This document shows, piece after piece, positions 53,421 through 64,000 of a stretch of 64,000 bases of DNA. Each line of letters opens with the position of its first letter. Position 1 is the stretch's first letter. Source of the stretch: Cladocopium goreaui (lineage: Eukaryota; Sar; Dinophyceae; Suessiales; Symbiodiniaceae); assembly GCA_947184155.2 (NCBI GenBank), contig CAMXCT020006647.1:310001-374000 (forward strand), in the 5' to 3' direction. The notes below the pieces were generated by a model. That model did not search any database. It saw only the letters and a list, made by a program, of their open reading frames with translations, and had not been told where the DNA came from. The position numbers were made by a program, and so were the translations under genes.

Positions 53421-54480
53421 GGCCGCAGTCTCCCCATCCTGTTTTTTGTTTCACATATTAGATTTGCTTCTGTATCCCTTAATTTCGCATCTTGAATGTC
53501 AGCAGGTCCACAAGTTGTTCCCGCATGAACCCTTTCCCCACACTGTTTGGGGTCTCTTGCCGGTGTTTTTTTTTTTATATTGTTTATCATAACCCAGAAA
53601 ATGGAGAAATAACTTTTTGACAATAATTGGGAATTTGGTTGGTGAATTCATTGTAAGGTTTCGCGATGGCAATTTGAATTTGTAATGGTTTAGCCAATTT
53701 TTGCTGGTAAACTACCCATTGCAACATGTTACATTCCCCCTTTCGGGAAGTGGCGCAGGATATCTAATTTTGTTTCTAGCTGTGAAAAATCATGGTTAGC
53801 ATAGGTTTTTGCGATTTTCCCCAACAAACCAACGCATTGAAACCGTCAAAGCCATATGTACATGTTATGATTGCGTTTTAGTTGACATTGTCTGGCTTAT
53901 TTAACCATGCTCAATCATTCTCACATGTTAAATAAGCCCCTTCAGCCTACAATCGACCATTCCATAAATGGATACCGTACCCTCAACTTTAGTGGTAGAA
54001 CACATTGTTTCCCTTAATTTCCCCCAACAAACCAAGCATGATGGTTAACCCCATCATCCCCCTCAATTTTGGTAGTAGAGAAACATTTACCATAGTTTCC
54101 TCTAAACCAATAGCATCCCGTTAGTTAACATTACTGCGTTTTTTAACATGACCACACTTGGTGAATTAACACTACTTATCTCCATTGTTTGATTTGTTTG
54201 TTGGTCAAGTACCATCAATATACATTTATTCGCCATTCTATACAACGCGGCGCCCCTCCAGTTACAAACTGGTTTGCAAACTAGTTTGATGTATCTATCA
54301 TAAGTCCTACTTATTGACTAAACCAGTAGCTACCTTTAAAAAGTTATCAAAGGAAGTTGGGAAGCAATACTTCCGTGTTACGGACAAATAGAATTCTGAG
54401 ACTTGAAATGATGAAGGGCGGTAGATCGTATATGAATACATAACATAACAATACATAACAAAAGAATAAGGGTGCATACA

Positions 54481-54870
54481 ATGACGGGGTGGTGACGAAG
54501 GGAAGTGGTGACGAAGGGAAGTGGTGAAGAAGGGAAGTGGTGACGAAGGGAAGTGGTGACGAAGGGAAGCGGTGACGAAGGGAAGTGGTGACGAAGGGAA
54601 GTGGTGACGAACGGAAGTGGTGACGAAGGGAAGTGGTGACGAAGGGAAGCGGTGACGAAGGGAAGTGGTGACGAAGGGAAGTGGTGACGATGGGAAGTGG
54701 TGACGATGGGAAGCGGTGAGGAAGGGAGGTGGGGACGAAGGGAAGTGGTGAGGAAGGGAAGTAGTGAGGAAGGGAAGTGGTGATGACGGGAGGCGGTGAC
54801 GATGGGAAGTGGTGACGATGGGAAGTGGTGACGATGGGAAGTGGTGAGGAAGGGAAGGGGTGAGTTGGGG
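54481..54870. repeat. 16-bp minisatellite of island 2
   Basis: GTGGTGACGAAGGGAA is repeated about 24 times with GATG, GAGG and AGCGG variants. On the minus strand it reads as a Ser/Pro/His-rich frame in all three phases, which is an artefact. Confidence 0.95.
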
Positions 54871-56400
54871 AGGAAGCCGGAGCACGAAACCTTGTGTTTT
54901 TCCGTGTAAAGTGGCTGCAGCCGGCGATGAAAGGTACCTCGTCTGTGCGACGGGTGCGGCTGCGGTCGTTTTGTGCGCGAATTGTTCCTCCTATGTGTTT
55001 TGCAACGAGTCGTTGTGTCTGTGTGCGTAGTTCTATTCGGTTCTTGAATCTCTGGTTGCAAATTGCATTGGAATGGCTGCATGAATGTTGCATGGGCTAT
55101 GTTTTGGGGAGGAAGCCGGAGCACGTAACCTTGCGTTTTTCTGTGTAAAGTGGCTGCAGCCGGCGATGAAAGGTACCTCGTTTGTGCGACGGGTGCGGCT
55201 GCGGTCGTTTTGTGCGCGAATTGTTCCTCCTATGTGTTTTGCAACGAGGGGTTGTGTCTGTGTGCGTAGTTCTATGCGGTTCTTGAATCTCTGGTTGCAG
55301 ATTGCATTGGAATGGCTGCTTCATTGTCGTCATTTGATGTTGCCACGTGCGTAGATAGGTGCGGGTTTGCCACGGGATGTTGCGAAACGCATTGTAATGG
55401 CTGCATGCATGTTGCATAGGCTCTGTTTTGGGGAGGAAGCCGGAGCACCAAACCTTGCGTTTTTCCGTGTAAAGTGGCTGCAGGCGACGATGAAAGGTAC
55501 CTCGTGTGTGCGACGGGTGCGGCTGCGGTCGTTTTGTGCGCGAATTGTTCCTCCTATGTGTTTTGCAACGAGTGGTTGTGTCTGTGTGCGTAGTTCTATG
55601 TGGTTCTTGAATCTCTGGTTGCAGATTGCATTGGAATGGCTGCTTCATTGTCGTCATTTGATGTTGCCACGTGCGTAGATAGGTGCGGGTTTGCCACGGG
55701 ATGTTGCGAAACGCATTGTAATGGCTGCATGAATGTTGCATGGGCTATGTTTTGGGGAGGAAGCCGGAGCACCAAACCTTGCGTTTTTCGTGTAAAGTGG
55801 CAGCAGCCGACGATGAAAGGTACCTCGTCTGTGCGACGGGTGCGGCTGCGGTCGTTTTGTGCGCGAATTGTTCCTCCTATGTGTTTTGCAACGAGTGGTT
55901 GTGTCTGTGTGCGTAGTTCTATGCGAAGAGTGAATCTCTGGTTGCAGATTGCATTGGAATGGCTGCTTCATTGTCGTCATTTGATGTTGCCACGTGCGTA
56001 GATAGGTGCGGGTTTGCCACGGGATGCTGCGAAACGCATTGTAATGGCTGCATGAATGTTGCATGGGCTATGTTTTGGGGAGGAAGCCGGAGCACGAAAC
56101 CTTGTGTTTTTCCGTGTAAAGTGGCTGCAGCCGGCGATGAAAGGTACTTCGTCTGTGCGGCGGTTGCGGCTGGGGTCGTTGCATGCGCGAAGTGTTCCTC
56201 CTATGTGTTTTGCAACGAGTGGTTGTTCCTGTGTGCGTAGTTCTTTGCGGTTCTTGAAGGTCTGGTGGCAGATCGCATTGGAATGGCTGCTTCATTGTCG
56301 TCATTTGATGTTGCCACATTGTCGTCATTTGATGTTGCCACGTGCGTAGATAGGTTCAGGTTTGCTACGGGATGCTGCGAAACGCATTGTAGTGGCTGCG
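54867..56400. repeat. ~324-bp satellite, about 4.5 copies
   Basis: GGGGAGGAAGCCGGAGCAC recurs at about 54867, 55108, 55431, 55754 and 56079. Full spacing is 323-325 bp; the first unit lacks about 85 bp (TTCATTGTCGTCATTTGATG part). The last unit has an extra 18-bp direct repeat (TTGTCGTCATTTGATGTTG twice). Confidence 0.95.
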
Positions 56401-56429
56401 TCAAGGTTGCTCGGTGCAGCGGCTGCATG

Positions 56430-61782: not shown

Positions 61783-63300
61783 GGAGGAAGCCGGAGCACG
61801 AAACCTTGTGTTTTTCCGTGTAAAGTGGCTGCAGCCGGCGATGAAAGGTACCTCGTGTGTGCGGCGGTTGCGGCTGCGGTCGTTTGGTTCCTTCTATGTG
61901 TTTTGCAACAATGATGGTTCCTGTGTGTGTAGTTCTATGCGTTTCTTGAAGTTGTGGTTGCAGATCTTATTGGAGTGGCTGCATGAATGTTGCATGGGCT
62001 ATGTTGTGGGGAGGAAGCCGGAGCACGAAACCTTGCGTTTTTCCGTGTAAAGTGGCTGCAGCTGGCGATGAAAGGTACCTCGTTTGTGCGACGGGTGCGG
62101 CTGCGGTCGTTTTGTGCGCGAATTGTTCCTCCTATGTGTTTTGCAACGAGTGGTTGTGTCTGTGTGCGTAGTTCTATGCGGTTCTTGAATCTCATGGTTG
62201 CAGATTGCATTGGAATGGCTGCTTCATTGTCATCATTTGATGTTGCCCCGGGGACTTGCTGTATCACTCTTTGCGGGTTTGCCACGGGATGTTTTGCGAA
62301 ACGCATTTAATGGCTGCATGAATGTTGCATGGGCTATGTTGTGGGGAGGAAGCCGGAGCACGAAACCTTGCGTTTTTCCGTGTAAAGTGGCTGCAGCTGG
62401 CGATGAAAGGTACCTCGTTTGTGCGACGGGTGCGGCTGCGGTCGTTTTGTGCGCGAATTGTTCCTCCTATGTGTTTTGCAACGAGTGGTTGTGTCTGTGT
62501 GCGTAGTTCTATGCGGTTCTTGAATCTCATGGTTGCAGATTGCATTGGAATGGCTGCTTCATTGTCATCATTTGATGTTGCCACGTGCGTATATAGGTGC
62601 GGGTTTGCCACGGGATGTTGCGAAACGCATTGTAATGGCTGCATGAATGTTGCATGGGCTATGTTTTGGGGAGGAAGCCGGAGCACCAAACCTTGTGTTT
62701 TTCCGTGAAAAGTGGCTGCAGCCGACGATGAAAGGTACCTCGTCTGTGCGACGGGTGCGGCCGCGGTCGTTTTGTGCGCGAATTGTTCCTCCTATGTGTT
62801 TTGCAACGAGTGGTTGTGTCTGTGTGCGTAGTTCTATGCGGTTCTTGAATCTCTGGTTGCAGATTGCATTGGAATGGCTGCTTCATTGTCGTCATTTGAT
62901 GTTGCCACGTGCGTAGATAGGTGCGGATTTGCCACGGGATGTTGCGAAACTCATTGTAATGGCTGCATGAATGTTGCATGGGCTATGTTTTGGGGAGGAA
63001 GCCGGAGCACCAAACCTTGTGTTTTTCCGTGTAAAGTGGCTGCAGCCGACGATGAAAGGCACCTCGTCTGTGCGACGGGTGCGGCTGCGGTCGTTTTGTG
63101 CGCGAATTGTTCCTCCTATGTGTTTTGCAACAAGTGGTTGTATCTGTGTGCGTAGTTCTATGCGGTTCTTGAATCTCATGGTTGCAGATTGCATTGGAAT
63201 GGCTGCTTCATTGTCATCATTTGATGTTGCCACGTGCGTAGATAGGTGCGGGTTTGCCACGGGATGTTGCGAAACGCATTGTAATGGCTGCATGAATGTT
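61783..63300. repeat. ~324-bp satellite of island 3, about 4.6 copies
   Basis: GGGGAGGAAGCCGGAGCAC recurs at about 61783, 62008, 62344, 62669 and 62995. The first unit is again shortened, and the second carries a different middle (CCCCGGGGACTTGC). Monomers are very like those of island 2. Confidence 0.95.
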
Positions 63301-63420
63301 GCGCGTGGCACTTTTCTTCTTTGTTTTTGTGTATTTCTTGATATTGAAGTTTTTTCTTCATTACTATTCTTAGTAGTGGAATGCTTCTTGATTTATGTTT
63401 TGGGGGGGGGGGGGGGAAAG
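63300..63420. other. Insertion in the satellite with a 15-base G run
   Basis: Between two satellite units there is unrelated T-rich sequence (TTTCTTCTTTGTTTTTGTG) and a run of 15 G (63401-63415) followed by AAAGGAAAGC. A partial satellite unit resumes after it. It may be an insertion or a repair junction. Confidence 0.7.
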
Positions 63421-63689
63421 GAAAGCGGAGCACGAAACCTTGCGTTTTTCCGTGTAAAGTGGCTGCAGGCGACGATGAAAGGTACCTCGTGTGTGCGACG
63501 GGTGCGGCTGCGGTCGTTTTGTGCGCGAATTGTTCCTCCTATGTGTTTTGCAACGAGTGGTTGTGTCTGTGTGCGTAGTTCCATGCGGTTCTTGAATCTC
63601 TGGTTGCAGATTGCATTCGAATGGCTGCTTCATTGTCGTCATTTGATGTTGCCACGTCCGTCGATAGGTTCAGGTTTGCTACGGGATGC

Positions 63690-64000
63690 TGCGAAACGCA
63701 TTGTAGTGGCTGCGTCAAGGTTGCTCGGTGCTGCGGCTGCATGCGTGATACTATTGTCTTTTGCAGCTGAAGATCGTAAATCGTATTGGAATGGCTGCAT
63801 CAAGGCTTGAAAGTGATTTGTCAGCAGATTTTCTCAATTTTGGCGCTAATAATTTTCCTTTTAAAATTCCTTTTAAAAAGTGCTTCAAAATCGTCTTTTT
63901 GTCGCTTTGGCGTCGAGATCCGGTTGTGGAGCTGCAATTTCCGACGCCATTGCACGTAGTTCTATTGTGTTTTGCAACTCAGTCTCTGCAGATCGCATTG
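63690..64000. repeat. 298-bp satellite of island 3, first copy
   Basis: The change from the 324-bp to the 298-bp satellite happens at CGAAACGCATTGTAGTGGCT, the same words and point as at 56377 in island 2. The array runs off the window end. Confidence 0.95.

What the first reader, a model, noticed from the sequence alone, without database searches (positions are those of the whole stretch)
54341..64000. Two PPDK introns carry colinear composite satellite islands
Islands 2 and 3 share a near-identical head and then the same module order (16-bp minisatellite, 324-bp satellite with a shortened first unit, identical junction, 298-bp satellite). They lie in the introns before and after two small PPDK exons (59595-60084). 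Independent satellite growth would not reproduce the order and junction. Either one island was copied into both introns as a unit, or a segmental duplication occurred with later loss of the duplicated exon.
Basis: seen in the sequence. Interest (0 to 1): 0.75.

Follow-up and report, generated by a model that had tools for sequence, protein, structure and literature searches.

The report
Satellite-stuffed Helitron transposons in coral symbiont
The two look-alike repeat islands in this alga's gene are best read as two separate landings of one jumping-DNA family, whose start sequence occurs at hundreds of places in the genome and whose examined copies carry tandem repeats in a largely constant order.

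Summary
Islands 2 and 3 share a short head, 16-, 324- and 298-bp arrays and their junctions; beyond the window, island 3 ends in the same tail as island 2. They are not a private PPDK duplication. The head pattern occurs 668 times in the genome, reversed control 0. Of 25 examined copies with two or more modules (islands 2 and 3 included), 24 keep one order. Ends are sharp: 5' A|TC…, 3' hairpin + TACTA + CTGG|T. Island 3 interrupts a small inverted-repeat element whose uninterrupted copies show an A^T junction without target duplication, as in canonical Helitrons (PMC4067079, passages). The islands belong to two head subfamilies, each nearer to copies elsewhere than to the other. So they are independent insertions of a non-autonomous Helitron-like family in a Cladocopium dinoflagellate. 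A third element (26556-28281) has related ends around different arrays. Island 2's 41-bp unit has the layout of the element's own 3' end (noticed post hoc). A Rep/helicase partner was not tested: that search did not complete. Oyster Helentrons with satellite cores are known; this is a more composite form in a dinoflagellate.

The parts
54347..59476 (+). Island 2: complete Helitron-like element, 5130 bp, subfamily A, in the PPDK intron 52971-59594
   Evidence: sharp ends shared with other copies; exact head and tail pair; intron
61031..64000 (+). Island 3: Helitron-like element, subfamily B, 4140 bp in all; continues in L009 to extended coordinate 65170; in the PPDK intron from 60085 to about 65309
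26556..28281 (+). Island 1: third Helitron-like element, 1726 bp, related ends but different internal arrays (TGTAG, 94-bp, AGAT and others)
54347..54488 (+). Head of island 2 (TCAAAGGAAGTTGGGAAGCAATACTTCCG..., subfamily A)
   Evidence: first 75 bp identical to L021 and L039
54489..54863 (+). 16-bp array, island 2
   Evidence: TRF
54865..56410 (+). 324-bp satellite, first unit shortened, island 2
   Evidence: TRF and unit starts
56411..57570 (+). Junction and 298-bp satellite, island 2
57619..58307 (+). 17-bp array, island 2
   Evidence: TRF
58302..58621 (+). 41-bp array; the consensus unit has the hairpin + 5 nt + CTGG layout of the element's 3' end
58720..59476 (+). Tail of island 2, ending CCCGC-CTCGT-GCGGG-TACTA-CTGG
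   Evidence: same tail in island 3 and other copies
61031..61500 (+). Head of island 3 (subfamily B) with 43-bp and 60-bp arrays
   Evidence: first 75 bp identical to L028, L043 and L050; TRF
61501..61777 (+). 16-bp array, island 3
   Evidence: TRF
61779..63724 (+). 324-bp satellite, first unit shortened; at 63303-63418 it holds 116 bp where contig C5384 has 18 bp between the aligned blocks
63725..64000 (+). 298-bp satellite of island 3 (continues in L009)
60983..61030 (+). Left half of the small inverted-repeat element (TTACCCTCTGGTAA...) that island 3 interrupts; right half in L009
   Evidence: uninterrupted relatives in L051 and L008
59595..59759 (+). PPDK exon between the islands
59955..60084 (+). 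PPDK exon between the islands

Best explanation
Islands 2 and 3 are two independent insertions of one dispersed, non-autonomous Helitron-like (rolling-circle) transposon family of a Cladocopium dinoflagellate. A full copy starts with TC and ends with a GC hairpin, TACTA and CTGG, and goes between A and T without duplicating the target. Between the constant ends, copies carry tandem arrays in a constant order (16-bp, 324-bp, 298-bp, and in some copies 17-bp and 41-bp; some copies lack several of these), inherited as one cargo. This explains the equal order and the shared junctions. Shown: the ends, the dispersal of the head and the 324-bp unit, the order in the copies examined, one clean empty site, and separate ancestry of the two islands. 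Inferred: movement by rolling-circle replication by a Rep/helicase encoded elsewhere in the genome, and growth of the arrays by slippage or re-replication.
For: Head pattern at 668 places, reversed control 0. 324-bp unit: 1171 first-look candidates, 271 matches in the 40 scored. 24 of 25 copies with two or more modules in one order, islands 2 and 3 included; 10 of the 30 copies examined were seen from end to end and all 10 are in order. 26 distinct 5' flanks: base before TC is A in 23 and G in 3; leaving out the 11 picked from exact pattern matches that fix this base, A in 12 of 15. 13 distinct 3' flanks: end CTGG in 12, next base T in 12 (the search patterns themselves contained TC and CTGG, with up to 3 and 5 mismatches allowed). 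Empty site for island 3: ungapped A^T junction in three uninterrupted relatives of its host element, 81-84% identical. Head of island 2 identical over 75 bp to two copies elsewhere, island 3 to three others, 25 heads compared. First 324 unit: islands 2 and 3 at 90.4%, nearest elsewhere 98.7% and 97.3% among 148 units. Exactly three exact heads and three exact tails in the extended window, paired on one strand; an exact head appeared in 1 of 100 shuffles. The 8-bp subterminal inverted repeat GGAAGTTG/CAACTTCC of islands 2 and 3 is GGAAGTTT/AAACTTCC in island 1.
Against: No Rep/helicase partner was tested (the PF14214 search did not complete). A convincing empty site was found for only 1 of the 10 copies tried. 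The hairpin alone is not significant: 251 of 2000 shuffles have a stem as long. The base before TC is G in 3 of 26, and one 3' end reads CTGT and another CTGG|CCGGTA. T at -3 (26 of 26) and A at +2 (12 of 13) suggest a longer target preference than plain A^T. The copies were not a random sample, and copies without a head in the held stretch were not counted.
Confidence: 0.87

Rival explanations
1. Segmental duplication around the PPDK exons with later loss of a duplicated exon.
For: Same strand, same module order, same gene.
Against: Flanks outside the element ends are unrelated; homology stops at the family's own ends; each island is nearer to copies elsewhere.
Confidence: 0.02
2. One island was copied straight into the other intron (local transposition or conversion).
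For: They share ends and cargo.
Against: Different head subfamilies and different module sets; nearest relatives lie elsewhere.
Confidence: 0.03
3. Assembly artefact: a repeat placed twice.
For: Arrays are unevenly assembled; C5384 is a redundant contig of the locus with other unit arrangements.
Against: C5384 also holds the tail of island 2, the exons, island 3 and the next exon in the same order; flanks are distinct; the same structure occurs at other loci.
Confidence: 0.02
4. A TSD-less or short-TSD cut-and-paste transposon that only resembles a Helitron.
For: Partner untested; T at -3 and TA on the right are strongly preferred.
Against: A TA duplication is excluded at the island 3 site; only an 8-bp subterminal, no terminal, inverted repeat was found; TC and CTGG ends fit Helitrons.
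Confidence: 0.08
5. Introners: the elements created these introns.
For: Introners with TIRs are known in Symbiodinium (PMC9860276, passages).
Against: The element ends lie 118 to 1376 bp inside the introns; island 3 interrupts an older insertion in the intron.
Confidence: 0.02

Closest known systems
Cg_HINE non-autonomous Helentrons of the Pacific oyster (PMC7492417, abstract and passages seen)
   Same: Dispersed non-autonomous rolling-circle-type elements with constant flanks and satellite-like central repeats; no target duplication.
   Different: There the core holds one, exceptionally two repeat clusters; here up to five arrays in fixed order (island 2, L053), with canonical TC/CTGG ends and A^T insertion instead of the TT preference; host is a dinoflagellate.
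Canonical Helitrons (ends as given in PMC4067079, passages seen)
   Same: TC start, CTRR end, palindrome shortly before the 3' end, insertion between A and T, no target duplication at the one site tested.
   Different: Palindrome is 15 nt and 9 nt from the end (16-20 nt and about 11 bp there); an 8-bp subterminal inverted repeat; satellite core; partner not tested.
DINE-1 / HINE Helentrons (PMC4067079, passages seen)
   Same: Subterminal inverted repeats, 3' palindrome, tandem repeats inside some.
   Different: Mite HINE subTIRs are 12-15 bp and the elements prefer TT or T-rich sites; here 8 bp and A^T.

Membership tests
Helitron (canonical) | 5' end TC | tested here: met
   Sharp 5' boundary at TCAAAGG with 26 distinct flanks; pattern contained TC, up to 3 mismatches
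Helitron (canonical) | 3' end CTRR | tested here: met
   CTGG in 12 of 13 distinct 3' ends, CTGT in 1; pattern contained CTGG, up to 5 mismatches
Helitron (canonical) | insertion between A and T | tested here: met
   A before in 23 of 26 (G in 3), T after in 12 of 13; A^T at the empty site
Helitron (canonical) | no target-site duplication | tested here: met
   Island 3 empty site, ungapped junction in three uninterrupted relatives of the host element; no convincing empty site for the other 9 copies tried
Helitron (canonical) | palindrome about 11 bp from the 3' end | tested here: inconclusive
   CCCGC-CTCGT-GCGGG, 9 nt from the end; 251 of 2000 shuffles reach this stem length
Helitron (canonical) | Rep/helicase-encoding autonomous partner with the same ends | not tested
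   PF14214 search of the genome was asked for between and never answered
Helentron / HINE | insertion at TT | tested here: not met
   Insertion lies between A and T
Helentron / HINE | subterminal inverted repeats (12-15 bp in mite HINEs) | tested here: inconclusive
   8 bp, 5 nt from the 5' end and 26 nt from the 3' end; in island 1 both sides differ together
Introner | element supplies splice sites / makes the intron | tested here: not met
   Ends lie 118 to 1376 bp inside the introns
Segmental duplication | homology continues into the flanks | tested here: not met
   Only matches of 10 to 26 bp between flanks, best E 6e-4

The most novel reading that the evidence does not exclude
The family is a cargo system in which constant Helitron ends carry exchangeable satellites, and one of those satellites was made from the ends themselves. 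The 41-bp repeat is a tandem array of Helitron 3' terminators (5-bp stem, 5-nt loop, 5-nt spacer, CTGG), left by repeated termination and restart of rolling-circle replication, and island 1 shows the same kind of ends with wholly different arrays. If so, rolling-circle transposons are a source, not only a vehicle, of satellites in dinoflagellate genomes.
Probability: 0.3. Interest if true: 0.65.

Novelty: new variant of a known kind. Interest (0 to 1): 0.45.

Why it matters
It turns a puzzling intron duplication into a mobile family with defined ends and 668 head sites in a coral symbiont genome in which known repeat types make up 17.3% of bases out of 36.5% repeats (PMC9412976, passage). Fixed ends allow copies to be mapped, dated and used as presence/absence markers between strains. 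The family also gives a direct test case for how satellite arrays arise and spread through rolling-circle elements. In the rows and abstract openings listed by four library searches (20 of 146 papers; 44: 6 of 7; 50: 4 of 4; 75: 15 of 1258) I saw no description of such a family in a dinoflagellate; PMC9087856 mentions Helitrons in Symbiodinium genomes in one passage.

Tried and rejected
Segmental duplication, intron-to-intron copying, assembly duplication, introner origin and a TA target duplication were each tested (see rivals). Plasmid search with the 324 unit: no match. Protein search with a reverse-strand frame of the satellite: 1718 matches, 120 listed, 118 of them from ENA alone and none with a usable organism name, so the host range stays open. 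L058, a head without the other modules, was looked at as a possible autonomous copy: no ORF of 120 aa or more in the 5500 bases fetched. The terminator layout was sought in 7 other repeat units, both strands, and not found. No convincing empty site for island 2, L051, L052, L053, L057, L059, L060, L061 or L062 (L052, L053 and L057 gave only AT-rich simple matches; part of the L053 rows was cut from view). Rows dropped: L053 in the 3' flank count, because its first ten flank bases equal those of L052, repeats of the same locus, the window's own copies in other loci, and loci with no head in the held stretch. Of the 26 flanks, two are internal second heads (L017, L044), and eleven (L043-L050, L052-L054) were picked from exact matches to a pattern that fixes the bases at -2 and -1. 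The copies are those closest to the query unit and those have exact heads; neither is a random sample.
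Full report
WHERE IT IS. The window is C6006:310001-374000 of a 1.17-Gb genome in 6202 contigs. The contig is 376,315 bases long, the same length as the contig of a named Cladocopium goreaui PPDK protein (P0003), 92% identical over 34% of the query. So the host is taken to be Cladocopium goreaui SCF055, a coral symbiont later called C. proliferum (PMC10522408, passage). Its published hybrid assembly used PacBio and Illumina reads and has 1.2 Gb in 6843 scaffolds (PMC9412976, passages); the contig count here differs. The exons between the islands are PPDK. 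The islands lie in introns 52971-59594 and from 60085 to about 65309.

The arrays, the shortened first 324 unit and the 16/324 junction are as described; the 324/298 junction is near-identical. The 2315 bases after the window show that island 3 ends with the same tail as island 2. The elements are 54347-59476 (5130 bp) and 61031-65170 (4140 bp). A second contig, C5384, carries the tail of island 2, the exons, island 3 and the next exon, with unique stretches 99.2% and 100% identical. I read it as a redundant assembly of the same locus. Its arrays are arranged differently, so unit counts should not be trusted.

DISPERSED FAMILY. A 31-base head pattern with up to 3 mismatches occurs 346 + 322 = 668 times; the reversed control occurs 0 times. 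The 324 unit gave 1171 first-look candidates, of which 40 were scored with 271 matches on many contigs. Thirty distinct head-anchored copies were examined, islands 2 and 3 included; 10 were seen from end to end, the rest are cut by the stretch held. Of the 30, 25 have two or more modules, and 24 of these keep the order 16-324-298-17-41-tail; the exception, L047, repeats 16-324. Not every copy has every module: L061 has only the 16-bp array between its ends, and L058 shows a head alone in the stretch held. L053 has every module that island 2 has. The exact 16/324 junction GGTGAGTTGGGG is found at seven other loci: L023, L036, L041, L043, L046, L052 and L060.

ENDS. Across 26 distinct left flanks the homology stops before TC; the preceding base is A in 23 and G in 3, and the base at -3 is T in 26. 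Eleven of these were picked from exact matches to a pattern that fixes -2 and -1 but not -3; among the other 15 the preceding base is A in 12. Two of the 26 are internal second heads. Across 13 distinct right flanks the end is CTGG in 12 and CTGT in 1, and the next two bases are TA in 12; the exception, L051, has CTGG|CCGGTA. The search patterns contained TC and CTGG, so these two counts lean towards them. The 3' end is CCCGC-CTCGT-GCGGG-TACTA-CTGG. The hairpin alone is not unusual by shuffling (251 of 2000). Island 3 interrupts a small inverted-repeat element. Joining its two flanks gives CCATTTA^TAGTG, which matches uninterrupted relatives in L051 (twice) and L008, 81-84% identical, without a gap at the junction; further, more distant relatives align with gaps or differences nearby. 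A TA duplication would have left CCATTTAGTG. No convincing empty site was found for the other nine copies tried.

SEPARATE ANCESTRY. The heads fall into two groups after about 36 bases: 14 of type A, 10 of type B and 1 other among 25. Island 2 is identical over 75 bases to L021 and L039; island 3 is identical to L028, L043 and L050. In the first 324 unit, islands 2 and 3 are 90.4% identical, while island 2 has 98.7% relatives (L021, L055) and island 3 a 97.3% relative (L036) among 148 units. Flanks are unrelated; the best match between them is 26 bp at E 6e-4. The 160-bp tails discriminate less: islands 2 and 3 are 95% identical there, the nearest others 99% (island 2) and 96% (island 3) among 13 tails.

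A THIRD ELEMENT. In the extended window there are three exact heads TC[AG]AAGGAAGTT (26556, 54347, 61031) and three exact tails GTACTACTGG (ending 28281, 59476, 65170), all on the + strand; an exact head appeared in 1 of 100 shuffles. With one mismatch there are three more heads on the minus strand and ten more tail words, seven of them in the 41-bp array. The first exact pair bounds the window's other repeat island, whose arrays are different. Its subterminal inverted repeat is GGAAGTTT/AAACTTCC against GGAAGTTG/CAACTTCC, so both sides differ together. In the fetched loci there are one further head (L050) and two further tails (L061 ending CTGG, L042 ending CTTG) of this second type.

THE 41-BP UNIT. 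Its consensus CTTTG-TAGTA-CAAAG-TAGTA-CTGG has the same layout as the element's end. Of 61 units from 7 sources, found with up to 10 mismatches, 57 keep CTGG. The strict layout arose in 31 of 200,000 shuffles and a looser form in 158 of 20,000. The resemblance was noticed first and tested afterwards. One stem pair is broken in 15 of 61 units, and there is no covariation to prove the stem. In L059 such an array follows the element's 3' end directly.

MECHANISM. Most likely these are non-autonomous Helitrons, peeled and copied by a Rep/helicase made elsewhere, starting at TC and stopping after the 3' hairpin at CTGG, and placed between A and T. Ends, order in the copies examined, dispersal, one empty site and separate ancestry are shown; the enzyme, the rolling-circle step and the way the arrays grew are inferred. 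Some copies hold extra stretches between modules (L054, L056, L059; a 368-bp stretch shared at 97% by L052 and L062), so the interior seems open to gain and loss.

KNOWN OR NEW. The Helitron end rules used here are those quoted in PMC4067079 (passages). [quoted passage not shown] Here the ends are of the canonical type and the core is more composite. The rows listed by the searches, part of the papers found, showed no dinoflagellate Helitron family of this kind; one paper mentions Helitrons among repeats of Symbiodinium (PMC9087856, one passage). Subscription journals and repeat databases were not searched.

LIMITS. The partner search did not complete; the tail was not counted genome-wide; copies were chosen by similarity or exact head; other species were not searchable by name.

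Noticed in passing
26556-28281: The window's other repeat island is itself an element with related ends (TCGAAGGAAGTT...GTACTACTGG) around different arrays (TGTAG, 94-bp, AGAT).
   Followed up: partly
58302-58621: The 41-bp unit has the hairpin, spacer and CTGG layout of the element's own 3' end.
   Followed up: partly
60983-61030 and L009: A small inverted-repeat element (TTACCCTCTGGTAA...TTACCAGAGGGTA, about 110 bp) with relatives in several fetched loci; island 3 sits inside one.
   Followed up: partly
63303-63418: 116 bp with a long G run interrupt the 324 array of island 3; contig C5384 has 18 bp there. Insertion or assembly error.
   Followed up: no
2209-8283: Run of ORFs, two of them with weak, sub-threshold matches to phage-integrase domains; possibly a decayed tyrosine-recombinase retroelement.
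   Followed up: no
44242-47484: Single long ORF of 1080 aa with ankyrin repeats.
   Followed up: no
L017 and L044: Two copies carry a second head a few hundred bases inside the first.
   Followed up: no
L059:3541-3772: A 41-bp array follows directly after the element's CTGG end.
   Followed up: no
L052:3378-3745 and L062: A 368-bp stretch shared at 97% between two copies, ahead of the tail: possibly a further optional module.
   Followed up: no
C5384 (L011, L012): Redundant contig of the PPDK locus that continues beyond the end of C6006.
   Followed up: partly
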